Position numbers and translations under genes: made by a program. Of a stretch of 64,000 bases of DNA, positions 28,923 through 51,277 are shown in pieces (the first letter of the stretch is position 1; the number at the start of each line of letters is the position of its first letter). Where the stretch lies: NCBI RefSeq assembly GCF_963576615.1, contig NC_088715.1, forward strand, positions 52,244,007 to 52,308,006, read 5' to 3'. A model generated the notes under the pieces. That model was given only the letters and a program-made list of their open reading frames with translations, had not been told where the DNA came from and made no database searches. The stretch is from Watersipora subatra (lineage: Eukaryota; Bryozoa; Gymnolaemata; Cheilostomatida; Watersiporidae).

Positions 28923-29689
28923 TTAAGTGAGGGGATGGTAATCAGCTTGGGTCTGCTTCCAATGAAGTTGTTACAGAGAGTGGATGAAGGCCGTCAATCT
29001 GTCGCCGCCGTGCACATGGTTCATACAGTTTAGTTGATCGATAGCGCATGCTATGAAAATAGCATTATTAAAAGAGAACAAAAATATGCAGTAATATACG
29101 TGTAGGATACATCAATAGCAGTTTGGCAAGCCGCTTCAATAATTCCTTCGGTTTAGCAAAATGTTGTTTAAATGTATTATTACAATTATACTCGCCTTTT
29201 TAAACCACTCTCTAAAATGGTGTTATAATTCATATTGAATGTAGTAAATATTTGAACTAAAATATACTCTCCTCAGCTACAACAGTTGAGACAAGTAGCT
29301 CAAATATACTTTGGTAATGTGTTCACTGATTGGCCACCAAGCTGAGTTTAGATGCTCGAAATCAGACACTGGTTAATTTCTTGCTGCAGAAATCATGGTC
29401 GCCACTCTTGCCAACAGCATAAAGAATTTTACTGTTTACATGATGTCTCGTCTCACTCGTGTATCCAATAAAGCAGGCATCTCAAATTTAGGCATTTCAT
29501 GTTATTGTGACCGCAGTTTAAGATATGAGGTTAGGTTAAGTTAAAACCTAGCAGATTCGAAGATGTTTCACGTGACGCCCATGTTTATACTTTTTATTTT
29601 ATGTAGTTTAGGCTTAAAAAACTTTCTATCATTCTTTTGAAAATTTATTACCCTACTATGAAGCTATAAAAATTAATTTTTCCTTGTTG

Positions 29690-31073
29690 TATAAGGTGCC
29701 ATATAGCTGTATTGTGTATTGCCAAACACGTTTGCAATACCCAACACTGATGCACAATATATTTTGTGTATTGCTAGGTACACTAGCAATAGCCATTATA
29801 CAACAGCCATGAGTTTAAAAATCGTTACTGCTTGTCACTATTAGGTTTACTAGTAGTGCACGAGGCAAAGACTCAATAGATGCTAAAAGGATCTATTGCT
29901 TTGTACAACATAAAATTGCAACATCAGCTAAATATATTGGAGCGGTATCCATGTGTTTAGCACGAGAGGGTCACACCTGCATGTGACCACAAGCTAGACC
30001 TGGTCAACTCTGGAAATAAACAGATTTCTCACGGTTTAAGCAAATGTCTCAATATTTTGGGCGGCTTGACGTTATAACCCGGATTTTCGAGTTATAACCT
30101 TCAACCGCCTAAGCCGGATTTGAGGAGCGGGTTTGTGCAAAGTCACAGTCACAAGTGGTACCGACGTCAGTGTTAATCCAAGTTAATGCTACAGAAAATA
30201 CCACACGACGCCGCAAAAACTTAAGCAAGATCCGTGTAGAATTGTATAAAAACCCAGAGTTTGTACACATCTCTTCAGTTGGTTTCCAGTCACTGTTAAT
30301 GACCAAGCACCACTGAGTGAGAGAAGGCACCAGAGTTCCAAGCTACATGTAAGTTGTATTGTGTTGTCACAAAGTAAGGGGTGGACATTGGGAGAATGCT
30401 GAAGGGAAAACAGACTCCATATGGAAAAAAAAAAAAAAACTCGTGCTGTTAGAAAATTTTAATCTAATACACTGGTAGACTCCAGGGACACTACATACTT
30501 TTAATTAAATCAATTATATACATATATATTGTATAGAGTAAAACTTCATGGATAATTGTGGTTGCCTCATATGGACAAAGCCTTTTGGCTGATGCTGACT
30601 ACTATTTTCTAATATTATATTACACTAGGTGTTGGGATTTTGAAAATATAATGGGAGTACATGAAATGTTAAACTAAAACTTGTTGTCCTCACATCTAAT
30701 AATAACTACTGTTTAGTGCTCTATGAATAATTAATCCTGTTGGTCATATAAGGAGTCTTCTCATTCGTGCCAATAATTCAGAATATTCGAGATTTGTACA
30801 CATCTACAATGCTACACAACCCACAGCAGAGCCGGACGCTCAGTTCATTGTCTAGATATAGTGCGTTACACATAGACCTTGTAATAAGATGATATGCGGG
30901 TGTCTTGAAGGCTAATTAAGGAGAGTGCAAGTTTAAGATGCACAGAAAAATATCCAAATAGATTGTAAGAGAGAAACAAACAATGAGATAGATATATACA
31001 GTAAACCACTGATATAACCGAGGCAAATTTGAATAATTAACCATGACACACTTGGCATATTTTTCCTATTACA
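29690..31073 (+). repeat. 5' LTR
   Basis: 1,384 bp, starting TATAAGGTGCC and ending CCTATTACA. It matches the 3' LTR except for about six substitutions and one inserted A. It contains the promoter. The 73-codon frame on minus (30109-30330) recurs in the other LTR and is not supported as a gene. Confidence 0.95.
30245..30281 (+). promoter_or_regulatory. LTR core promoter: TATA box and TCAGTT initiator
   Basis: TATAAAAA at 30245 is followed by TCAGTT at 30275, placing the likely +1 A at 30277, 32 bp after the first T. This is standard RNA polymerase II core spacing. U3 would be about 587 bp. The equivalent sites are at about 40566 and 40596 in the 3' LTR. A possible ATTAAA polyadenylation signal lies at 30504. 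No AATAAA was seen downstream of +1. Confidence 0.6.
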
Positions 31074-32455
31074 AATTTGAAGGTTCTTTTAAGAGGCTGT
31101 GTAGCTGTAGCCTTGTAGAATGTAGGATAACTGTTAAGAACACCAAAAAAAATTTGGTTGTCAACATTTTATTTTGAGTTTTGGGACTTTCGGCATTCCT
31201 CATTCTGTCCACCCTTGCTGTGTTTACATTGTTGGCTGTTGCCTGCTGGTAGGTTGGCTGTGCGACATAAGCTGTCATTAATCAAGATTAGGTTGGCATT
31301 ATCGTTTCATATTTTGACCTCTCGGATTATGTGTCATGGTTTGTGCCACTGGACCATGTACACCTGTAGCTCATTACTGTCCGGTTATAGTTGTGGTTTT
31401 GCCTCTATAATTTATAGGTAGAAAGTGTTAGCAGTTAGATGATTTATCTGTGATAAGCCCCCTTTATTTGCGCAACTTTACCTTGACAATCTGGTCCCTT
31501 ATGCTGTCTAACTGAGTTGGTGTAGCGACCCACATAGCAATTTTAGCTGATAACTGTCGTATAACCTTGGATGCTGCAAGGTTGAGACTAAGTATAAAAA
31601 TAGTGTACGAATAAATAGCTTTCCTGCCGGCAGAGTAGAATATGAGTGGCATGTAAACTCAAAATGAATATTAAATGGAAGAAATGTGTTATGCACGTGA
31701 AGCCTTAGGATTAAATATGTATTATTGAAAGATATAAGCTTTCTGCCTAAGTATGAGCTATGTAGTTAGATAATCCTAAGCAATGTTGTTTCCGAGTAGG
31801 TATAGCTTCCGCAGCCAACGTACCACGTGGTTATGCATTACATTTCATATCCTTTGTTGTGACAATGACATGGATATGGGTCAATCTACAAACAAAACTA
31901 CCTTGCTGTAATTTTGTAGATTACCGAGGAATTATCTGCGATAACACTGCTGTACCCTGGTGGCGCACCAGCTGTGAGGGTAAGCTGTATATTATGAATG
32001 GCAGAAATTTCCAAATGCTTGTGCGTATATCAGACAATGTAACAACACAAAAACTGTATGCTTTAGAGTGTAGCTGAGATCAGGACGGGTTACTTCGAAG
32101 ACCGCCAGACAGATTCATCCTTTTCCGCAACAAATTATAAAAGGGAAACCATAAGGCAAGCTGTAGATACTTGACAGTCTTTTGTGTGGTTGTGGGAGTG
32201 TCTTGTATGTTTATATAAGGGTTGTGATTATAAGTGGGGATAATTATTAAAGAAAAATAAAAAGGAAGTGATCTAATTTTACGCATATATATATACACAC
32301 ATATATATATATATATACACACATATATATATATATATAGTAGATGCCTACCAGGTAAAATAAAATAGTGTTGTACCTTGGACATAGTACAAACATTGTA
32401 CAGCACTCAAAGTCGGACAGTTTACGCTTAAAATAGGTTGTGTGTAAACTTTGTG
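31074..32455 (+). other. retroelement leader region
   Basis: About 1.4 kb between the 5' LTR and the first ATG of the polyprotein, unusually long. It contains short uncertain frames (31158-31421 and 31865-32077), a splice-donor-like GAGG|GTAAGC at 31979/31980, and a TATATA/CACACA microsatellite at 32284-32339. It begins AATTTGAAGG, with no TGG primer-binding motif. Confidence 0.6.
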
Positions 32456-35400
32456 ATGGCAGAACTAGAGCGGGTTAAGGCCGATAACGTGAGGCTAGTG
32501 CAAGAGCACGAACGACTAGTGGAAGAAGTTAGGCAGGCGACTAGTCATATCAAAACCCTGGAGCAGCGTGCTGCCGGCAATTCTGAATTAGCAAGTTCAA
32601 TGCTTGCTAGCTCATGGATGGCGGTTGGAGGCACAGCCATACCCAAGTATGACCTCGAGCGAAAGGAAAATCCTTTTGCCCAGTTCAGATTGGATTTTGA
32701 AATCCACTGCCAAGGCATGGGTCTAGATGACAGAAGTCCTTCTAGACAGATGTTGTTACATAAAGCCTTGGAAGGGTTGGCACTTCAGCGCTATAAAGCT
32801 ATCCTTCAGGAGGGCAACCTGACCTCTTACAAAGATATTATGGATGAGTTGGAGACATACTTAACTGCACTTGAGGGTGGAGTTAGGTATTCATCCACGT
32901 CATTCCATAGGCGGCAGCAAGAAGAGGGTGAGACGGTGACAGCATATTATGCTGCACTGATGAAGCTGGCTAAAATTTCCTGGCCAGACCCTGGCAACCC
33001 TCCACCTGAGCAGGTGCTGCTAGAGAAGTTCATCAGGGGCTTACGACTCCCGTTGAAACGGATTGTCTTAGCCAAAGAGCCTGACAACATTAAGGCTGCT
33101 TTGGAGCAAGCATGCAAAGCGCAAGCGCAGCGTGAGTTCTTGCTAGAAGATGAGCCTTTGGTGACTGCTGCGGCAGTACATGATGATGCATTAACTAAAC
33201 AGGTGGAAGATCTGACTAAGCAAGTCAGCAACTTAGTTGCTTTCGCTGCTAGCCCCAGATCGTTTGATCCTCGTGTTAATGTGCCTCATGCTCAGCAGCC
33301 TAACGATTGCCCAAGGTGGCCTGAACCACGTCATCATTTCCCTCCGCGGAAGAATGGCGTAGGTCGCAGACCAGGAACGGCTTATAACAGTCGGGGTGAT
33401 CAGCGCTGCTGGAACTGCAATTCCTTTGGTCATTTTGCAGCAACTTGCCGCAAACCACAAAGGTCTCGTGGCAGTAGGCCACCAAGGGTTAATCCACCGC
33501 AGTCCGGGAGGCCTAGAGACTCTGTGAACAGTACAACTGTGGTCAACCAAGAAGCAGATGCACTTGGTAGATCAGCTGGGGGTGGGGTAAGCTTTAGACA
33601 AGGGCATGTGTTCTTAGCCATGTTTTGCTTTATGAGCTTGGTTGCTGGTAGTTCTGCTCAAAAGCCAATGGTATGCCAGACCACAGTGAGAGGTCAGCTG
33701 TTTAAGTTGCCAGCCATATATGAGTGCCAGATAGACTCTATCGCGTCTGCAACTGCCTCACCACAGGACGTTACGCTTGAATTGGCTCGCCGCAACCTTT
33801 TACAATACAAGTCAAAAGGATGGGTGTGCCGTGGCACTAAGTCTAAGGCACGTCTTTTGAGATACTTCTTTGGTGATGAATTACTAAAGGAGTTCTCGGA
33901 AGAACCTATTCCTGTCAGTATTGACCAATGCTGGGAGATGCTTAAGAAAGGTACCAGCCCCGCTGGTCCTCTCCTTAACACTTCTACTGGTTTGATGAAG
34001 ACTAACAATGACTTGAACTGGAGAACACCACGAGGTGGGCTCCCAGAATGTTGCAAATGGCGGGAGTGGGTAGTGTCTAATTATTACGTCACTCCTGTTT
34101 CGGTGTACAGCCATTTTGGAGCTAAAACATTCCAATGCACTGGGGCTGACGTGTCGGGATGTCCTCCATACTCTAAAGGTCAATGTCAGCTGGATGACAA
34201 GTCTTTGGTATGGGAGGTCAATGACAAGGTGGAATGCGAATATTTACCTTATCAGACTATGCTTGGCACTAGGGCTGGTACCAGCTGGATGTCTGCTGAC
34301 GGACAGCTGGCTCTCACCACACACCAGACCAGAAATGTGTCTGACTGTGGTGTTACTTGGGTGCTGTCGGATCAGGGCATTGCTTTTAGACAGATAGGTT
34401 TAGAAAGGAATAAGCGTGCTGGGTCAGATGATAACAGCATTGGCTACGTAATGACGGACATTCTGGCTGCTGAACTTCAAGGGCTGCATGATGTTGTGAG
34501 AGACGAAATGCATACTCTCTATAGACATTCATTACAACAAACTTGCAGTTCTATGGAGGTCATGCCTGAGTTGGTTCGTGCTTTTACTATCTCTAATCCC
34601 ACCATGGCTGTGCGCCAACTACTCAATAAGACTGGTGTAGTCGCTGCCGCAACACATGAGGTGTTGGAGTTGTGGTCATGTCTGACTATCCGCAATGTAA
34701 CTTTTAAAAATGTATCCTCGAGTTGGATAGCAAAGAAAAGTTGCTTGGTGGAAGTACCGGTGCAAATATATTTGCATAATCAGACATATGATGGATACCT
34801 AGACACTCAAACTTTGGTCATTAAGCATACAGGGACTCCCATGGGTTGCTCTGAACAACCCTGGGTAACGTTCCGACTGCTTAAGAGAATGTATACATAT
34901 CATAGACCAACTTTCAGTGTTAAAAGGGTTTCACCTGAAGTAGGTCCAGCCATTCCATTCACTCACTTGCCATTGCAAGATGACTTCGATAATCTGGTGA
35001 CACCTCGGGTGTTTAGCCCGGTGGTCATGTACACATGGCAAGAACTGCAGCCAGCTGCCGATCTCAATGCTTTGTTACACAACCAGTTAGTCGAAATGGA
35101 AGTGCTGAATGATCTGAAGGTCATATCACAACCGGTAAACTATTCTAGATCTGCCCCAGGGAATCGGTTGGCTGAGAACACCGTGAGGCGTGGGTTAGCC
35201 AACGCAGCAACCTTTCTGAGGGAGCCTATACATTTGTGGGTATTTTTGAGTTGCTTAATATTAAATATCTGTTTCTTAGTTAAATGTTTTAAAAAATTCC
35301 AGTGGTACAGGTATTTTGAGACAAGGTTCATTAGTTTAAGGTCCAATAAGGATAGAATAGTTAAAGGACCAAGCAGTCGTGCAGAGGTGGAAAGTTTCAT

Positions 35401-38400
35401 AGGAGATGAGCCGATTGAGGAAGTAGTGCGGCGGGTATGCAAAGGTAATCCCAATGATGAGGGAGAGACAGAGCTAGTCAACCATCTAATCTCAATGAAA
35501 AAGGTTCTGACAATTGGTGTCCAAATCAATGACAGAACGTTTTCGTTCCTTTTAGATAGTGGGGCCTCGGTATCGTTGGTAACCAGCAGGCTAGTACAAC
35601 AACTCAAGTTAAATCCTGTCAGCAGGAAGGGTGACTGGGACACTGAGGTAGTCTCGGTTACTGGACAAAAACTTCCGTTGAACAGTGTGGTCGAGTTAAA
35701 TATCAAAATTGGAACTAAGAGTCGGGTACACGAATTCCCAGTACTGGGAAATTGTCGTCTAGCAGTAGATGGTGTACTCGGACTAGACATTCTCGCTACC
35801 CTTCCTCCCTTCACAGTTGATGTGAAGGCCAAGAAGGTGTTTATTGGGAATGAGCAGATGCCAGTATCTGGTGCAGTAGATCTTCAGGTGTCTGCGTGTG
35901 CAGCAGACACCGTGAAGATTGCACCAAGAACTGCGGTAGTGGTACCGTGCAAGCTCTCCTTGCCTATCAAACTGGGTACTGAGTTACTGTTTGAGCAGGT
36001 CTCACAGCCTGTGGGTGAGCTGTTAAGTCCACACACGTTAGTCTGTGCAGACGCCACTATCCCAGTCCGGGTTGCTAACGTAAGTCAGCACCCAGTTACT
36101 GTCTACGCGAATTCCAAAGTGGGAGTTGTTTCTCTAGCTGCTGAGGTTAAAAGCCATGGTATTGCTGAACACAAGCCATTAGGAAAACATTCCAGTGAAG
36201 TGTTGAAGTCTCTCAATCTTGGAGATAGCAACATCACTTGGGAGGAAGAGGGCAGGTTGAAAGAGTTGCTGGTGAAGTACTCACAGTTGTTTGCCAATGA
36301 AGACGCTGATCTTCCTGGTACAACAGCCTGTGAGCACGAGATAAAGGTGACCGATGGGCGTCCCATCAGACTGAAACCATATAGAGTGCCGCAGAGTAAG
36401 AGAAGTGAGGTAGAGGACAAACTCGAAGATCTGCTTCGAGCTGGTGTCATCTCCCCTTCTAGCTCTCCCTGGGCATCTCCTGTGGTTTTGGTGTCTAAAC
36501 CCGATGGTTCAGTGAGAATATGCATTGACTATCGGAAGCTCAATGCCGTCACTGTGCCAGATGCCTATCCTCTGCCACGTATTGATGAAGCCATAGAATT
36601 TCTGTCAGGGGCGCAGTATCTTACTACCCTTGATTTATTTTCTGGTTTTCACCAAGTCCCTGTGGCGGAAGATTCAAGGAAATACACCGCATTCATTACC
36701 AGCAAAGGCCTGTTCGAATGGAATCGACTTCCTTTCGGATTGCGCAATAGTCCTGCTACGTTTCAACGACTCATGTCGTTTGTACTCAGTGGGCTATTGT
36801 TCAGCTCAGCCATAGTGTATCTTGATGATGTTCTCATCGCTAGCAAAACCTTTGATGAGCATGTCAAACATTTGGAGGAGGTGTTTCAACGTCTTCTCCA
36901 GTTTGGGCTCGGACTGAAGATGAAAAAATGTCATTGGGTCAGAAGATCCTTGCCATTTTTGGGTTTTATCATATCCCCTGAAGGGTCATGTCCAAACCCG
37001 GAGAACATCAGCAAGTTAGCTGACTATACTCCTCCTTCTAATGTCTCTCAGGTGCGTACGTTCTTGGGATTTTGTAATTTCTATCGCCGGTTTGTGGCTA
37101 ACTATGCTGAAATAGTAAGACCACTGACCAATCTGACGAAAAAACGAAATCAGTTTGTCTGGACTAAGGAATGCGATGTGGCATTCAAGACACTGATTAA
37201 AAAGCTCACCAAAGCACCCGTACTTCGGTATCCCCAGTTCGACAAGGTGTTCCTTGTGTCTGTTGATGCTAGCAAGTATGCTTGTGGTGGAGTTCTGAGT
37301 CAGATTTATGGTGATAGAGAACATCCGATTGCATATTTCTCTCGCACGTTTCAGAAGCATGAGGTAAAGTATGAGACAGTAGAGAAAGAGCTGTATGCAA
37401 TCGTTCTTGCTTTGAAACATTGGCGTCATTATCTGTATGGCCACCCAGTTTATGTGTATAGTGACCAACAAAGTATAAGCTGGGGAATCAAGCAAGTTAA
37501 TAATGCAAGGCTCATGAAATGGGTGTCACAGCTGGCGGAGTTTGATGTCAAAATATTCTATCGACCTGGGTCGAAGAACCGCCCAGCTGACTTCTTCAGT
37601 CGCATGAATTATACTTCTGCGGGCCTGGAGAGTGATGAACCAGTTTTAGCAACCAGGCCCATGGTGTCAGCACTGTTTTCTTTGGCTTTAGAGCCTCAGA
37701 AAGACTACCTAAGAGTAGAGCAGCGCAAGGACCCAGTCCTCCGCTACGTGATTGAAAGGAAAGTTAACTCTCTTCCTCTTTCACATGTCCCGGAGGATTT
37801 AAGGTTAGAGGTTGCGAAGATGGAGAAGAAATGCGATTATTCTATTAAGGATGGGTGTTTACGCAACTTCTCTGACTCTTTAGGCCGGCTGGTGGTGCCT
37901 AGGCACCTAATTACTAGAGTTTTAGAGGAGTGTCATGATACGGTATATGGAGGACACTTTAAGGTCGAGAAAACACTTGGTAAGGTGTTGGAGAAGTTCT
38001 ACTGGCCTACAGTCAGGAAGGACGTAGATAACTGGGTAAAATCTTGCCAAGGGTGCCTTACGAGGTCCCATATGACACATCCCAATAAAGAGCCGATGCA
38101 GCCTATTTTGGCTGCAGCTCCATGGAATGCTGTTGTAATGGACATCTTAGGCCCACTGCCAGTGTCCAATAGGGGTTTCAAATACATCTTAGTGATGATG
38201 GACCGGTTCACTAAGTACCCCGAGTGTGCCCCTCTGAGGTCTATTTCTGCCAAAATAGTGGCCAGGAGCTTTGTACAGCTCATAGTTTGTAGACATGGTG
38301 TACCCAATCAGCTACAAACGGACAGAGGTACGCAGTTTACTTCTCAACTGCTAAATCAAGTCTCAAAGTTATTGGGAATGAAACAATCATTTAGCAGCGC

Positions 38401-39244
38401 TTACCACCCTGAGAGTCAGGGATTGGTCGAGAAGTTCAATGGAACTTTGTTACAACTCCTGAAGGCGTATGTGGACAGGGACCAAAAGGACTGGTGTTCC
38501 TACTTGGACCTGGTTCTACTAGCCTACAGGACAAGCAAACATACTTCAACCGGGTTCTCCCCGTTTGAGATGGAACATGGTCGGACCTGCCGCCTGCCTG
38601 TTCATTTCCTCTGCCCTCCAACTGATGAACCAAGTTTTGATTCATCTGATGATTTTGTCCTGACCTTAAGGCAGCAGCTCAGGAAATCATGGAAGGTAGC
38701 CCATGAGACTAATGAAGCTGCCAGTTTGGCACAGAAGAGGCAGCATGATAAGCGGGTGAATGTTGATAATATACACCCAGGAGATAAGGTTTACGTGAAG
38801 CGTCCTAATCTCAGGATTGGACTCTCACCTAAACTCCAGCCTGTCTACAAGGGACCCTATGAGGTTCTTGTTAAGCAAGGGGTAGATGTGCTTTTGCGGC
38901 AGGGTAGATCCCAAAAGCCCGACTGGGTTCACCTTAATGACTGCAAGCTTGCTCATGAACGGACACAGCATTGGCCTGATGCTGTGGGCTCTGAGGTAGT
39001 TCCCCCTTTTGGTGGTCTTGCCACGCCAACTACGCAAGCAGTGGGTCCAGTCCCAAATGCAATGTCTGGTGCTGATGGTGGAGATAACTCCACAGCATCT
39101 GATGTGGTAGCAGACTCAGGTCAGTCACCCGAGGCTGAGGAGGATAACATCAATTGGGATGATGAGTTAGAGGCAAAAGAGTTGCCACGGTACGAGCTGC
39201 GACCACGCGGCCCTAGGCCCATGTATGACATGAGCAAGTGGTGA
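32456..39244 (+). CDS. Gag-Env-like-Pol polyprotein (2,262 residues)
   Basis: The start chosen is the first ATG, at 32456. Domains in order: N-terminal coiled-coil (1-45); Gag capsid-like region (to about 300); CCHC zinc knuckle CWNCNSFGHFAATC (318-331). Next is an Env-like segment with a hydrophobic signal-like stretch (384-401), paired cysteines, seven N-X-S/T sequons, an RNKR site (651-654) and a transmembrane stretch (927-942) followed by a Lys/Arg-rich tail. Aspartic protease follows with DSGAS (D1034), then reverse transcriptase (about 1300-1500) with YLDD (1455-1458), RNase H with D1604, an HHCC integrase zinc finger (H1827...C1864/C1867), a D1896/D1956/E1992 core with 35 residues between D and E, and a GPY/F-like KGPYEVLVKQG end. 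There is no stop or frameshift between gag, env and pol. Pol identity is certain. The Env role is inferred from topology motifs, and its viral family is not recognised. Confidence 0.95.
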   Translation: MAELERVKADNVRLVQEHERLVEEVRQATSHIKTLEQRAAGNSELASSMLASSWMAVGGTAIPKYDLERKENPFAQFRLDFEIHCQGMGLDDRSPSRQMLLHKALEGLALQRYKAILQEGNLTSYKDIMDELETYLTALEGGVRYSSTSFHRRQQEEGETVTAYYAALMKLAKISWPDPGNPPPEQVLLEKFIRGLRLPLKRIVLAKEPDNIKAALEQACKAQAQREFLLEDEPLVTAAAVHDDALTKQVEDLTKQVSNLVAFAASPRSFDPRVNVPHAQQPNDCPRWPEPRHHFPPRKNGVGRRPGTAYNSRGDQRCWNCNSFGHFAATCRKPQRSRGSRPPRVNPPQSGRPRDSVNSTTVVNQEADALGRSAGGGVSFRQGHVFLAMFCFMSLVAGSSAQKPMVCQTTVRGQLFKLPAIYECQIDSIASATASPQDVTLELARRNLLQYKSKGWVCRGTKSKARLLRYFFGDELLKEFSEEPIPVSIDQCWEMLKKGTSPAGPLLNTSTGLMKTNNDLNWRTPRGGLPECCKWREWVVSNYYVTPVSVYSHFGAKTFQCTGADVSGCPPYSKGQCQLDDKSLVWEVNDKVECEYLPYQTMLGTRAGTSWMSADGQLALTTHQTRNVSDCGVTWVLSDQGIAFRQIGLERNKRAGSDDNSIGYVMTDILAAELQGLHDVVRDEMHTLYRHSLQQTCSSMEVMPELVRAFTISNPTMAVRQLLNKTGVVAAATHEVLELWSCLTIRNVTFKNVSSSWIAKKSCLVEVPVQIYLHNQTYDGYLDTQTLVIKHTGTPMGCSEQPWVTFRLLKRMYTYHRPTFSVKRVSPEVGPAIPFTHLPLQDDFDNLVTPRVFSPVVMYTWQELQPAADLNALLHNQLVEMEVLNDLKVISQPVNYSRSAPGNRLAENTVRRGLANAATFLREPIHLWVFLSCLILNICFLVKCFKKFQWYRYFETRFISLRSNKDRIVKGPSSRAEVESFIGDEPIEEVVRRVCKGNPNDEGETELVNHLISMKKVLTIGVQINDRTFSFLLDSGASVSLVTSRLVQQLKLNPVSRKGDWDTEVVSVTGQKLPLNSVVELNIKIGTKSRVHEFPVLGNCRLAVDGVLGLDILATLPPFTVDVKAKKVFIGNEQMPVSGAVDLQVSACAADTVKIAPRTAVVVPCKLSLPIKLGTELLFEQVSQPVGELLSPHTLVCADATIPVRVANVSQHPVTVYANSKVGVVSLAAEVKSHGIAEHKPLGKHSSEVLKSLNLGDSNITWEEEGRLKELLVKYSQLFANEDADLPGTTACEHEIKVTDGRPIRLKPYRVPQSKRSEVEDKLEDLLRAGVISPSSSPWASPVVLVSKPDGSVRICIDYRKLNAVTVPDAYPLPRIDEAIEFLSGAQYLTTLDLFSGFHQVPVAEDSRKYTAFITSKGLFEWNRLPFGLRNSPATFQRLMSFVLSGLLFSSAIVYLDDVLIASKTFDEHVKHLEEVFQRLLQFGLGLKMKKCHWVRRSLPFLGFIISPEGSCPNPENISKLADYTPPSNVSQVRTFLGFCNFYRRFVANYAEIVRPLTNLTKKRNQFVWTKECDVAFKTLIKKLTKAPVLRYPQFDKVFLVSVDASKYACGGVLSQIYGDREHPIAYFSRTFQKHEVKYETVEKELYAIVLALKHWRHYLYGHPVYVYSDQQSISWGIKQVNNARLMKWVSQLAEFDVKIFYRPGSKNRPADFFSRMNYTSAGLESDEPVLATRPMVSALFSLALEPQKDYLRVEQRKDPVLRYVIERKVNSLPLSHVPEDLRLEVAKMEKKCDYSIKDGCLRNFSDSLGRLVVPRHLITRVLEECHDTVYGGHFKVEKTLGKVLEKFYWPTVRKDVDNWVKSCQGCLTRSHMTHPNKEPMQPILAAAPWNAVVMDILGPLPVSNRGFKYILVMMDRFTKYPECAPLRSISAKIVARSFVQLIVCRHGVPNQLQTDRGTQFTSQLLNQVSKLLGMKQSFSSAYHPESQGLVEKFNGTLLQLLKAYVDRDQKDWCSYLDLVLLAYRTSKHTSTGFSPFEMEHGRTCRLPVHFLCPPTDEPSFDSSDDFVLTLRQQLRKSWKVAHETNEAASLAQKRQHDKRVNVDNIHPGDKVYVKRPNLRIGLSPKLQPVYKGPYEVLVKQGVDVLLRQGRSQKPDWVHLNDCKLAHERTQHWPDAVGSEVVPPFGGLATPTTQAVGPVPNAMSGADGGDNSTASDVVADSGQSPEAEEDNINWDDELEAKELPRYELRPRGPRPMYDMSKW
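33407..33448 (+). other. Gag CCHC zinc knuckle
   Basis: C-X2-C-X4-H-X4-C. It marks the nucleocapsid end of Gag and the last clear Gag feature before the Env-like segment. Confidence 0.95.
33605..35300 (+). other. Env-like glycoprotein segment of the polyprotein
   Basis: Residues about 384-948. The hydrophobic stretch at 384-401 ends GSSAQ and resembles a signal peptide. The ectodomain of about 525 residues holds many cysteines and sequons (NTST, NVSD, NKTG, NVTF, NVSS, NQTY, NYSR). RNKR at 651-654 could be a proprotein-convertase site giving surface and membrane subunits of about 250 and 290 residues. The membrane span at 927-942 is followed by KCFKKFQWYR, consistent with a cytosolic tail. 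An acceptor-like TTCTTAG directly precedes an in-frame ATG at 33620, so a spliced Env-Pol message is possible. It does not match the Env motifs I know from gypsy or vertebrate retroviruses. Confidence 0.75.
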
Positions 39245-39518
39245 AAAAAAAAAAAAAAAACAATAATAAAACGGCAGCAAATCGTACTATAATCTCGTAT
39301 TATATACACACATATATACAACTAAGACTATGCGAAAAGGAGCGCTAGTTTTACTGGAATTCTAAACCATGGGTATAGGTACGAGGTGGACTATGATTCC
39401 CTCGCCATCTATCTGGTTGGTGTTATTCCAATGTAGTTGAGATCGCCAAATGAACATAATTGACTAACTACACGCGTGTGGTTGGCTTGATTACATTCAT
39501 GTATACCTCAAATTGCAG

Positions 39519-39893
39519 ATGGCTGAGAGGAGTACCAGTGAGGGAGTAGTGGTGAAGGACGAGGTGGTGGAAAGGTCCATAGCCATGGACACAGTGGAAA
39601 ATTCCGTGAGCCAATCCGAGACTTCTGGGCCAAGCAGCGAATCCCAGCCAATGCCTGCAGTCAATGCTCAAAAGACGACCGGCAAAAGGGCCACCAAGGA
39701 AAAGGGCGAAAGGAGGAAGTCGAAGAAGGCAAAGGACTGTTGTAGTGCCGCCAGGGAATTAAGGAGACTCAGACAGTTGCTGAGAGACAGAAGAGCGGCC
39801 GTCCAATCAGCCCGGGACCGATCAAGCTACATGACCAATGTGTTAGATAAACTATTAAATGACATTCTGGCTGAAAAGAAGAGTAGCATGTAA
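39519..39893 (+). CDS. retroelement accessory protein, basic, 124 residues
   Basis: It lies between pol and the 3' LTR in the same orientation. ATG at 39519 is immediately preceded by TTGCAG, a splice-acceptor-like string, which suggests expression from a spliced mRNA. Residues 1-50 are acidic and Ser/Thr-rich. Residues about 55-75 are Lys/Arg-rich (KRATKEKGERRKSKKAK), like a nuclear localisation signal. Residues about 80-101 are Arg-rich and helical (RELRRLRQLLRDRR). The C-terminus has a Leu-rich LDKLLNDIL. An Arg-rich helix followed by a Leu-rich patch recalls Rev-type RNA export regulators, but this is only an analogy. A coiled-coil DNA- or RNA-binding protein is equally possible. Confidence 0.65.
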   Translation: MAERSTSEGVVVKDEVVERSIAMDTVENSVSQSETSGPSSESQPMPAVNAQKTTGKRATKEKGERRKSKKAKDCCSAARELRRLRQLLRDRRAAVQSARDRSSYMTNVLDKLLNDILAEKKSSM

Positions 39894-39997: not shown

Positions 39998-40010
39998 GAA
40001 AGAAGGAAGG
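39998..40010 (+). other. polypurine tract
   Basis: GAAAGAAGGAAGG directly abuts the 3' LTR start TATAAGG, the expected plus-strand primer position. It supports the LTR boundary chosen from the GTTG duplication. Confidence 0.85.
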
Positions 40011-41395
40011 TATAAGGTGCCATATAGCTGTATTGTGTATTGCCAAACACGTTTGCAATACCCAACACTGATGCACAATATATTTTGTGTATTGCTAGGT
40101 ACACTAGCAATAGCCATTATACAACAGCCATGAGTTTAAAAATCGTTACTGCTTGTCACTATTAGGTTTACTAGTAGTGCACGAGGCAAAGACTCAATAG
40201 ATGCTAAAAGGATCTATTGCTTTGTACAACATAAAATTGCAACATCAGCTAAATATATTGGAGCGGTATCCATGTGTTTAGCACGAGAGGGTCACACCTG
40301 CATGTGACCACAAGCTAGACCTGGTCAACTCTGGAAATAAACAGATTTCTCACGGTTTAAGCAAATGTCTCAATATTTTGGGCGGCTTGACGTTATAACC
40401 CGGATTTTCGAGTTATAACCTTCAACCGCCTAAGCCGGATTTGAGGAGCGGGTTTGTGCAAAGTCACAGTCACAAGTGGTACCGACGTCAGCGTTAATCC
40501 AAGTTAATGCTACAGAAAATACCACACGACGCCGCAAAAGCTTAAGCAAGATCCGTGTAGAATTGTATAAAAACCCAGAGCTTGTGCACATCTCTTCAGT
40601 TGGTTTCCAGTCACTGTTAATGACCAAGCACCACTGAGTGAGAGAAGGCACCAGAGTTCCAAGCTACATGTAAGTTGTATTGTGTTGTCACAAAGTAAAG
40701 GGGTGGACATTGGGAGAATGCTGAAGGGAAAACAGACTCCATATGGAAAAAAAAAAAAAAACTCGTGCTGTTAGAAAATTTTAATCTAATACACTGGTAG
40801 ACTCCAGGGACACTACATACTTTTAATTAAATCAATTATATACATATATATTGTATAGAGTAAAACTTCATGGATAATTGTGGTTGCCTCATATGGACAA
40901 AGCCTTTTGGCTGATGCTGACTACTATTTTCTAATATTATATTACACTAGGTGTTGGGATTTTGAAAATATAATGGGAGTACATGAAATGTTAAACTAAA
41001 ACTTGTTGTCCTCACATCTAATAATAACTACTGTTTAGTGCTCTATGAATAATTATTCCTGTTGGTCATATAAGGAGTCTTCTCATTCGTGCCAATAATT
41101 CAGAATATTCGAGATTTGTACACATCTACAATGCTACACAACCCACAGCAGAGCCGGACGCTCAGTTCATTGTCTAGATATAGTGCATTACACATAGACC
41201 TTGTAATAAGATGATATGCGGGTGTCTTGAAGGCTAATTAAGGAGAGTGCAAGTTTAAGATGCACAGAAAAATATCCAAATAGATTGTAAGAGAGAAACA
41301 AACAATGAGATAGATATATACAGTAAACCACTGATATAACCGAGGCAAATTTGAATAATTAACCATGACACACTTGGCATATTTTTCCTATTACA
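40011..41395 (+). repeat. 3' LTR
   Basis: 1,385 bp, over 99% identical to the 5' LTR. Differences include TGTTAA/CGTTAA, AAAACTT/AAAGCTT, TTTGTAC/CTTGTGC, AATTAATCC/AATTATTCC, GTGCGTT/GTGCATT and one extra A in an A/G run. Confidence 0.95.
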
Positions 41396-41399
41396 GTTG

Positions 41400-47180: not shown

Positions 47181-47598
47181 CAGTAAATGCCCTATAGCGT
47201 AAATCTCCTTTTTCGTAAATTCTTTAGCAATACATGTAAATATTTTTATGTGAAGCTTTTGCAAGAAAAAAGAACAATTTAAATTGACACTGAACGCGTG
47301 TGTAATCTTAATTTAACATAAAATTCCTATAATCACGGATTCTAAACTAATTGAAAGTGATAAGAAAAAGGAAAAAAGTTGTCGATACAAATTGATAATA
47401 CAACAGTTACTGTAGTCATTAAATTAACAAGTTAAACTCTTATTCCGTTTTTGAAGGCCAACAGGGTACATTCGTCAAGATCTTGAAACGAGTTAGGCTA
47501 TTTACATGTGCACTGTATTTTTTACCTAGTATAGCAAAAAATTCCTATAATTTTAACGTTCTTGGAACAGATTATTTACGTTGTGGGAGCATCTGCTG
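47181..47598. mobile_element. TA-flanked MITE, family of the 59.1-kb element
   Basis: The left end CAGTAAATGCCCTATAGCGT and the reverse-complemented right end CAGCAGATGCTCCCACAACGT are related to the ends of the element at 59129-60012 and are bordered by TA. The right third aligns with that element (AAAAGTTGTCGATAC..., AGATCTTGAAACGAGTTAG..., GTTCTTGGAACAGATT). Internally deleted relative to it. Confidence 0.7.
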
Positions 47599-47866
47599 TA
47601 CTTACTGCTGTACTTACTGCAGTACTTACCGCTGTACTCACTGCTGTACTTACTGCTGTAGTTACTGCTGTACTTATTGTTGTACTCATTGCTGTACTTA
47701 CTACTGTACTTACTGTTGTCCTTACTGCTGTACTTACTGCGGTACTTACTGCGGTACTTACTGCTGTACTTACTGCTGTACTTACTGCTGTACTTACTGC
47801 TGTACTTACTGTTGTACTTATTGTTGTACTTATTGCTGTACATACTGTACTTACTGTACTTGCTTT
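47590..47866. repeat. 12-bp minisatellite (CTGCTGTACTTA)n
   Basis: About 22 units, starting exactly at the right end of the TA element. The period is a multiple of 3, so open frames on both strands (Tyr/Cys-, Leu/Tyr- or Ser/Lys-rich) are artefacts. Confidence 0.9.
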
Positions 47867-48584: not shown

Positions 48585-48730
48585 GGCAAAAAAGATGTTA
48601 TAAACATGAATCAAACTATGTGGTATTTTCTTAGCTATAGTTTCAGTACAGCTGTAGTGACAAGGGCATATGAAGGTAATTGACTGATTTTGTTATTACC
48701 TATGGCCTCACCTTATTTGGATCCTCATTA

Positions 48731-48946
48731 ACACTAACTTGCAACTACCCTATCAGCTGCTCGCTTACATTTACACTAATTTGCAATTACCCTATCAGCT
48801 GCTCGCTTACATTTACACTAACTTGCAATTGCCCTACCAGCTGCTCACTTACATTTACACTAACTTGCAACTACCCTATCAGCTGCTCGCTTACATTTAC
48901 ACTAACTTGCAACTACCCTATCAGCTGCTCGCTTACATTTACACTA
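48731..48946. repeat. 42-bp minisatellite, left part (5 units)
   Basis: The unit is CTTGCAACTACCCTATCAGC followed by TGCTCGCTTACATTTACACTAA. It breaks off after CACTA, where the TA element starts, and continues with the same unit at 50952. The 42-bp period keeps frames open; the translations are not genes. Confidence 0.9.
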
Positions 48947-50951: not shown

Positions 50952-51277
50952 TAACTTGCAACTACCCTATCAGTTGCTCGCTTACATTTACACTAACTTG
51001 TAACTACCCTATCAGCTGCTCGCTTACATTTACACTAACTTGCAACTGCTCTGTCAGCTGCTCGCTTACATTTACATTAACTTGCTACTACCCTATCAGC
51101 TGCTCGCTTACATTTACACTAACTTACAACTACCCTATCAGCTGCTCGCTTACAATTACGCTAACTTACAACTACCCTATCAGCTGCTCGCTTACAATTA
51201 CGCTAACTTGCAACTACCCTATCAGCTGCTTGCTTACAATTACGCTAACTTGCAACTGCCGTATCAGCTGCTCACTT
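50952..51277. repeat. 42-bp minisatellite, right part (8 units)
   Basis: Continues the array broken at 48946. Later units change TACATTTACAC to TACAATTACGC, showing local homogenisation. It ends at GCTCACTTGG before AGAAGAAGTAGAAG. Confidence 0.9.

What the first reader, a model, noticed from the sequence alone, without database searches (positions are those of the whole stretch)
32456..39244. Env-like glycoprotein encoded between Gag and Pol in one unbroken retroelement frame
Seen: a CCHC knuckle, then a signal-like stretch, seven sequons, RNKR and a transmembrane span, then protease-RT-RNase H-integrase, all in a single ORF with no stop or frameshift. Known: errantiviruses and retroviruses place env after pol and express it from a spliced RNA. 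Inference: this is a non-canonical gag-env-pol lineage, perhaps from capture of a foreign glycoprotein into the gag-pol junction. Both flanking parts look intact and the LTRs are young, so the arrangement appears to be carried by a recently active element.
Basis: partly seen in the sequence, partly recalled or inferred. Interest (0 to 1): 0.88.

Follow-up and report, generated by a model that had tools for sequence, protein, structure and literature searches.

The report
Gag-Env-Pol retroelement with captured fusion glycoprotein
This genome carries many copies of a retrovirus-like element that encode a virus-type fusion glycoprotein in the middle, between the capsid and enzyme parts, instead of at the end, and they likely make all three as one long protein threaded through a membrane.

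Summary
Window 32456-39244 is one stop-free frame (Gag-CCHC, signal-like stretch, seven sequons, RNKR, TM, protease-RT-RNase H-integrase) in an LTR element with 99.5% identical LTRs. The middle segment matches Pfam's Monjiviricetes fusion glycoprotein (E about 1e-8; 12 of 15 aligned copies match, best 4e-15). It is a lineage: the genome gives 114 matches to an Env piece, 21 in stop-free frames of at least 2,000 codons. Of 20 stretches read (found by Env, mostly picked for open frames), 13 are one gag-env-pol frame, 3 are damaged, 2 have an in-frame UGA between env and pol, 2 lack pol. RT is Ty3-like; three RT clades carry Env. Env is under purifying selection (dN/dS 0.2). ICTV places metavirus Env downstream of integrase; the listings of nine literature searches showed no gag-env-pol element. 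Best mechanism, inferred: one polyprotein with Gag cytosolic, Env luminal and Pol cytosolic, as in flaviviruses; in one clade UGA readthrough would add Pol to Gag-Env. Splicing is the main rival and is not excluded. Single versus repeated capture, host species and protein fold (structure models failed) stay open.

The parts
29686..29689 (.). left copy of a possible 4-bp target-site duplication (GTTG); the LTR then starts at 29690
   Evidence: sequence context
29689..31073 (+). 5' LTR, about 1385 bp, 99.5% identical to the 3' LTR
31074..32455 (+). leader, 1382 nt, with 28 ATG triplets before the Gag start
32456..39244 (+). single open frame Gag-Env-Pol (stop-to-stop frame begins at 32432)
32756..33046 (+). 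Gag capsid-like stretch (weak Retrotrans_gag match; Gags of 4 related copies match above cut-off)
33404..33454 (+). CCHC zinc knuckle (Pfam match below cut-off)
   Evidence: nucleocapsid chains
33608..33658 (+). internal signal-peptide-like stretch, VFLAMFCFMSLV then SSA before Q (predicted signal peptidase site)
   Evidence: sequence
33659..35233 (+). Env ectodomain, Monjiviricetes-type fusion glycoprotein
34406..34417 (+). RNKR furin-type site
35234..35290 (+). C-terminal transmembrane span of Env
   Evidence: (equivalent residue in L021)
35516..35794 (+). retroviral-type aspartic protease
36494..36973 (+). reverse transcriptase, Ty3-like
37160..37543 (+). RNase H
37895..38410 (+). integrase zinc-binding and core domains
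39519..39893 (+). small downstream ORF (about 124 codons from Met plus stop), function unknown; dN/dS 0.30 against one relative
39998..40010 (+). polypurine tract GAAAGAAGGAAGG at the 3' LTR edge
   Evidence: sequence
40010..41395 (+). 3' LTR
41396..41399 (.). right copy of GTTG

Best explanation
This is a Ty3-type LTR retroelement, with near-identical LTRs, that encodes a fusion glycoprotein of the Monjiviricetes kind between Gag and Pol in one uninterrupted frame, and it likely makes Gag, Env and Pol as a single polyprotein that threads the ER membrane. Shown: order, frame, glycoprotein homology, the same order in related copies of three RT clades, purifying selection on Env, and an in-frame UGA-C between Env and Pol in one clade. 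Inferred: translation starts in cytosolic Gag; the hydrophobic stretch after the CCHC knuckle acts as an internal signal; signal peptidase frees the Env N-terminus; the C-terminal TM stops transfer so that protease-RT-RNase H-integrase are again cytosolic; furin cuts Env; the element's protease frees the cytosolic parts. Gag would keep the signal as a membrane anchor, as flavivirus capsid does (recalled), and Gag and Env would be made one to one. In clade C, readthrough of the UGA would give much Gag-Env and little Gag-Env-Pol. The Env would serve cell entry or cell-to-cell spread of the element.
For: Frame and order. Env homology: PF24664 in 12 of 15 aligned copies at E up to 1, best 4e-15; 35 invariant columns, 13 of them Cys. 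Lineage: 114 env rows, 21 in stop-free frames of at least 2,000 codons; 13 of 20 stretches read are one gag-env-pol frame; Env lies 0.5-7 kb upstream of RT on the same strand in 9 of 9 clade-A and 40 of 57 clade-B rows. Junctions look translated: 0 stops in 2,157 plus 1,596 linker codons in frame, against 118 and 273, and 100 and 183, in the other two frames, in 13 elements; clade C's UGA lies just past the stretch counted. Internal signal: best 12-residue hydropathy before Env at least 2.0 in 13 of 15. L026, L028, L033 and L034 show no Met in the 20 residues before the hydrophobic stretch, so Env there has no obvious start of its own. Clade C: one in-frame stop between Env and protease in 13 of 14 copies read; UGA-C in the 12 whose letters were printed. 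Selection: env dN/dS 0.215 between window and L021 (34 synonymous, 27 non-synonymous changes; Fisher p 6e-9), RT-RNase H 0.05. Env and RT-RNase H distances: Mantel r 0.94 in 15 copies, 0.79 within clade B. Fused Gag-Env in two ENA contigs.
Against: No RNA or protein data. The 20 stretches were found by Env and mostly chosen for long open frames, so intactness and Env presence are over-represented, also in the linker count. The Pfam match covers about 110-230 of 653 profile positions; clade C Envs (L037, L038) match no family. Both structure models failed (pLDDT 31 and 33); the class III reading rests on gB and rhabdovirus G hits below cut-off. L023 and L025 have a weak signal in the aligned stretch (1.4-1.5). 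Two pairs of copies share a one-mismatch donor-like word at an aligned place in early gag (L027/L030, L028/L034), which suits splicing. Env and RT trees differ in the place of the L027/L030 pair, a hint of some exchange. 17 of 57 clade-B RT rows lack an env match. One-to-one Gag:Env is unusual for retroviruses (recalled).
Confidence: 0.58

Rival explanations
1. Env is made from a spliced RNA: a donor in the leader or early gag joins an acceptor before the signal stretch, lending Gag's start codon; the continuous frame is then incidental to Env expression.
For: Errantiviruses use spliced env RNA (recalled; also the finding). Cer1 makes CERV by splicing from within a single polyprotein frame (PMC10309623, passages). 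6 of 13 elements have a donor-like word with at most one mismatch before the signal, 3 of 13 an acceptor-like site between CCHC and signal; a donor-like word in early gag is aligned and kept in L027/L030 and in L028/L034.
Against: The window has no such donor and no such acceptor near Env; 7 of 13 elements have no donor-like word, though leaders of the other elements were only partly in the stretches read. The L028/L034 word is absent at the aligned place in L031. Splicing does not require in-frame, stop-free linkers on both sides, yet all 13 elements tested have them (chosen for open frames). Clade C's Gag-Env, UGA, Pol layout fits Gag-Env being read as a unit.
Confidence: 0.24
2. Env works as a retained intron or skipped exon: spliced RNA gives Gag-Pol, unspliced gives Gag-Env-Pol.
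For: Would explain how Gag-Pol lacking Env could be made; frame is compatible.
Against: No consensus donor-acceptor pair flanking Env in the window; acceptor-like sites between TM and protease in 4 of 13 elements only.
Confidence: 0.06
3. Env is started separately by internal initiation at a Met near the signal stretch.
For: Some copies have a Met in or just before the hydrophobic stretch (window, L030, L031, L037).
Against: L026, L028, L033 and L034 show none in the 20 residues before it, and the linkers stay open in the Gag frame.
Confidence: 0.08
4. A copy-specific insertion or assembly chimera placed an unrelated glycoprotein in one retroelement.
For: None found.
Against: Same order in the other copies read that keep these parts, fused Gag-Env in two ENA contigs; Env and RT co-diverge.
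Confidence: 0.01

Closest known systems
Errantivirus / insect gypsy endogenous retroviruses (Metaviridae)
   Same: Ty3-type RT, LTRs, aspartic protease, integrase, an Env of viral kind
   Different: ICTV profile says metavirus Env is encoded downstream of integrase (PMC7879559, passages); here it lies between Gag and protease, in frame with both. No direct comparison with an errantivirus Env was run
Anakin (Pao-family element with chuvirus glycoprotein, mosquitoes; PMC7642597, passages)
   Same: LTR element that took a chuvirus-like glycoprotein; the PF24664 match suggests the same broad kind
   Different: Pao backbone, not Ty3; the passages read do not describe a place between Gag and Pol in one frame. 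The same group found no clear capture by Gypsy elements (PMC10084718, passages)
Atlas virus (Belpaoviridae, hookworm; PMC9094657, passages)
   Same: Gag, Pol and Env in one 2828-residue polyprotein without stop or intron
   Different: Order Gag-Pol-Env, Env last; class II phlebovirus-like Env; Belpaoviridae RT
Cer1 with CERV (C. elegans; PMC10309623, passages)
   Same: One long polyprotein frame with an extra protein in an LTR element
   Different: CERV lies at the C-terminal side, is made by splicing, and serves nuclear RNA export
Flavivirus polyprotein (recalled)
   Same: Works like it in the proposed model: cytosolic capsid, internal signal, luminal glycoprotein, TM, then cytosolic enzymes
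   Different: No relatedness claimed; no reverse transcription
Gammaretrovirus Gag-Pol readthrough (recalled)
   Same: Clade C has a single in-frame stop before protease-Pol
   Different: UGA-C instead of UAG, and it follows Gag-Env rather than Gag

Membership tests
Metaviridae (Ty3/Gypsy) | RT closest to Ty3 RT | tested here: met
   best solved-structure match is Ty3 RT 4ol8, E 1.5e-67
Metaviridae (Ty3/Gypsy) | Domain order protease-RT-RNase H-integrase flanked by LTRs | tested here: met
Errantivirus-type metavirus | Env encoded downstream of integrase | tested here: not met
   Env at 33659-35290, before protease; the small ORF after integrase has no Pfam match above cut-off
Monjiviricetes fusion glycoprotein (PF24664) | Match above Pfam's curated cut-off | tested here: met
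   window 34.2 bits against 27; 12 of 15 copies match at E up to 1, of which L025 is below the cut-off (24.3 bits); clade C L037 and L038 do not match
Class III fusion protein fold | Predicted structure matching rhabdovirus G or gB | tested here: inconclusive
   models unusable, pLDDT 31 and 33, no fold search run; gB and rhabdovirus G hits below cut-off
Anakin | Pao/BEL RT backbone | tested here: not met
   RT is Ty3-like; no direct BEL/Pao comparison was run
Troyka | CG...CG LTR ends, 3-bp duplication, no Env (PMC12440569, abstract and passages) | tested here: not met
   LTR ends are not CG...CG and Env is present; the duplication reads as 4 bp GTTG or 3 bp GTT
Readthrough-type expression (clade C) | Single in-frame stop between upstream product and Pol, conserved | tested here: met
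   13 of 14 copies read; L061's piece shows no stop and may belong elsewhere. That readthrough occurs is not tested
Infectious endogenous retrovirus | Enveloped particles that enter cells | not testable with these tools
   sequence only

The most novel reading that the evidence does not exclude
A deep branch of Ty3-type endogenous retroviruses abandoned the separate env gene: it makes Gag, a class III-type fusion glycoprotein and Pol as one membrane-threaded polyprotein, a flavivirus-like way of building a retrovirus, with Pol dosage set in one clade by UGA readthrough after Gag-Env, and with Gag-Env-only offspring that spread without Pol.
Probability: 0.48. Interest if true: 0.87.

Novelty: new variant of a known kind. 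Interest (0 to 1): 0.75.

Why it matters
Where the sources read state the place of env (ICTV Metaviridae, Atlas virus, bdelloid elements, the Cer1 paper's introduction), it is after pol, and spliced env RNA is the textbook way to make it. A stable gag-env-pol lineage would show a second solution to making a membrane glycoprotein from a retroelement genome, tie Gag and Env dosage one to one, and extend capture of Jingchuvirales-type glycoproteins from Pao to Ty3-type elements. Annotation that looks for env only downstream of integrase would miss such elements.

Tried and rejected
Rejected: copy-specific insertion or chimera; Gag or protease-linker identity of the middle segment; 2A-type separation, no NPGP motif in the 22 frames over 1,200 codons listed; Troyka and Anakin membership. 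Led nowhere: AlphaFold on 2 and 3 sequences; viral-contig scans with three single Envs; phage collection; PHROGs; PDB sequence search with Env (only chance-level ribosomal hits; rabies-type G at E 0.75 and above); Rfam and tRNA scans of the window. The search for relatives of clade C's RT (L037) did not complete, so single versus repeated capture stays open; the PF24664 search of the genome did not complete. Host species was not identified. On checking, overturned my first view that donor-like words are nowhere shared between copies; I lowered the main reading from 0.60 to 0.58 and the novel case from 0.50 to 0.48, and raised splicing from 0.22 to 0.24.

Full report
WHAT IS THERE. The window (G000:C8:52244007-52308006 of an unnamed 783.7-Mb genome in 239 contigs) holds one LTR element. 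LTRs lie at 29689-31073 and 40010-41395, with 6 mismatches and one 1-base gap over about 1385 bp. If the LTR starts at TATAAGG, GTTG flanks both ends (GTT if one base earlier); a polypurine tract GAAAGAAGGAAGG abuts the 3' LTR. The internal part has one frame, 32432-39244, of 2270 codons without a stop. Pfam on pieces gives, in order: CCHC (below cut-off), Monjiviricetes_fusion PF24664 (E 9.6e-9, above cut-off), aspartic protease, RT, RNase H, integrase. The RT-RNase H piece is closest to Ty3 among solved structures (E 1.5e-67).

THE MIDDLE SEGMENT IS AN ENV. It has a signal-like stretch ending SSA before Q, seven sequons, RNKR and a C-terminal TM. An alignment of the window and 14 of the 20 stretches read (left out: L021, L024, L035, L036, L039, L040, each close to a row kept) has 35 invariant columns, 13 of them Cys. 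Scanned one by one, 12 of 15 match PF24664 at E up to 1, best 4e-15; gB (3) and rhabdovirus G (3) appear below cut-off. Clade C members L037 and L038 match no family at E up to 0.05 but align with the rest. These hints point to class III fusion proteins (that gB and rhabdovirus G are class III is recalled), but both structure models failed, so the fold is not shown.

IT IS A LINEAGE. A 174-residue Env piece has 114 matches in the same genome (150 of 187 candidates scored, so a lower bound; some rows are fragments of one copy); 21 rows lie in stop-free frames of at least 2,000 codons. Of 20 stretches read, found by Env and mostly chosen for open frames (some near-identical), 13 are one gag-env-pol frame; L021, L025 and L026 have the same order but are broken by a frame change or stop; L037 and L038 have Gag-Env, one in-frame stop, then Pol; L035 and L036 have Gag-Env and no Pol. 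Starting from RT instead, 9 of 9 clade-A rows (identity 67% or more) and 40 of 57 clade-B rows (56% or more) have an Env match 0.5-7 kb upstream on the same strand; of the 17 without, 16 are in frames under 700 codons. Both RT lists are capped at 150 scored of several thousand candidates. Two ENA contigs encode fused Gag-Env: P0003, 98.7% identical to L022 over 818 residues, and P0004, 99% to L026 over 499 residues, the latter with precomputed gag and PF24664 domains; whether they come from another individual or species is not known.

EVOLUTION. Trees give three Env-bearing clades with support of 98-100 in Env and RT; treekit warns of long branches. Env and RT-RNase H distances correlate (Mantel r 0.94 for 15 copies; 0.79 within clade B; p 1e-4), as expected if they travelled together, though the two trees place the L027/L030 pair differently within clade B. 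Env-less Ty3-type families exist: L041 has Gag and Pol in separate overlapping frames and no TM or Env match; L042 has no Env match. Clade A's RT is closer to these two (45-55%) than to clades B or C (31-44%). In the unrooted RT-RNase H tree the 9 rows of such families form one clade, which allows a single gain or loss of Env, but rooting and the relatives of clade C are missing because that search did not complete. For 14 RT rows of such families no Env match lies within 10 kb (14 of 14); for L043-L049 only the RT-RNase H region was fetched.

SELECTION. Between the window and L021, Env has 34 synonymous and 27 non-synonymous changes, dN/dS 0.215 (Fisher p 6e-9); RT-RNase H 0.05. Between more distant copies synonymous sites are mostly saturated.

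HOW IT LIKELY WORKS. Both linkers, Gag to Env (45-312 residues) and Env to protease (45-165), are open in frame: 0 stops in 2,157 and 1,596 codons against 118 and 273, and 100 and 183, in the other frames (13 elements; elements chosen for open frames, and clade C's UGA lies just past the stretch counted). In four clade-B copies no Met stands in the 20 residues before the hydrophobic stretch. Clade C keeps one in-frame stop between Env and protease in 13 of 14 copies read; it is UGA-C in the 12 whose letters were printed. This says that Gag-Env is probably translated as a unit. The topology then follows (inference): internal signal, luminal Env, stop-transfer TM, cytosolic Pol, as in flaviviruses (recalled). 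On splicing: the window has no consensus donor before the signal and no consensus acceptor round Env; 6 of 13 elements have a donor-like word with at most one mismatch, and two pairs share one at an aligned place in early gag. Cer1 shows that splicing from a polyprotein frame happens (PMC10309623, passages). So splicing is weakened, not excluded.

COMPARISON. ICTV: metavirus Env is encoded downstream of integrase (PMC7879559, passages). Atlas virus has a single Gag-Pol-Env polyprotein, Env last (PMC9094657, passages). Anakin took a chuvirus glycoprotein on a Pao backbone (PMC7642597, passages); a later paper found no clear capture by Gypsy (PMC10084718, passages). Bdelloid TelKA has a paramyxovirus-type Env among ORF3 proteins (PMC5408684, passages). 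Nine answered searches listed no gag-env-pol element; I saw titles and abstract starts, several lists were cut (15 of 45, 15 of 98, 20 of 90), and the library lacks most subscription journals and bioRxiv, so it may be described elsewhere.

VERDICT. It is a new variant of a known kind: a Ty3-type element with a captured Env, in an unexpected place and with a likely unexpected way of making it.

Noticed in passing
39468-39893 (+), Met at 39519: Small ORF between integrase and the 3' LTR, no Pfam match above cut-off; dN/dS 0.30 against L021 (20 synonymous, 24 non-synonymous changes, Fisher p 3e-4), so perhaps an accessory protein.
   Followed up: partly
L035 and L036 (C5 and C3): Two Gag-Env-only elements share the same roughly 3.8-kb Pol deletion relative to L037 and are 97.9% identical to each other, so a Pol-less form may have been copied in trans.
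   Followed up: partly
clade C, L037/L038/L050-L060: In-frame UGA-C between Env and protease; L058 has UGA CUA.
   Followed up: yes
L027/L030 and L028/L034, early gag: A one-mismatch splice-donor-like word at an aligned place in each pair; may reflect protein constraint.
   Followed up: partly
G000:C2:70905198 and 70915150: Two same-strand copies with equal 2283-codon frames 9,952 bp apart, perhaps a tandem pair sharing an LTR.
   Followed up: no
31074-32455: Long leader with 28 ATG triplets before the Gag start, 92% identical in L021; how ribosomes reach Gag is unexplained.
   Followed up: no
35140-35883 (-): Antisense open frame of 247 codons over Env and protease; no Pfam match, likely chance.
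   Followed up: partly
47593-47847, 48726-48946, 50952-51277: Minisatellite arrays, a 12-bp unit and two arrays of a shared 42-bp unit.
   Followed up: no
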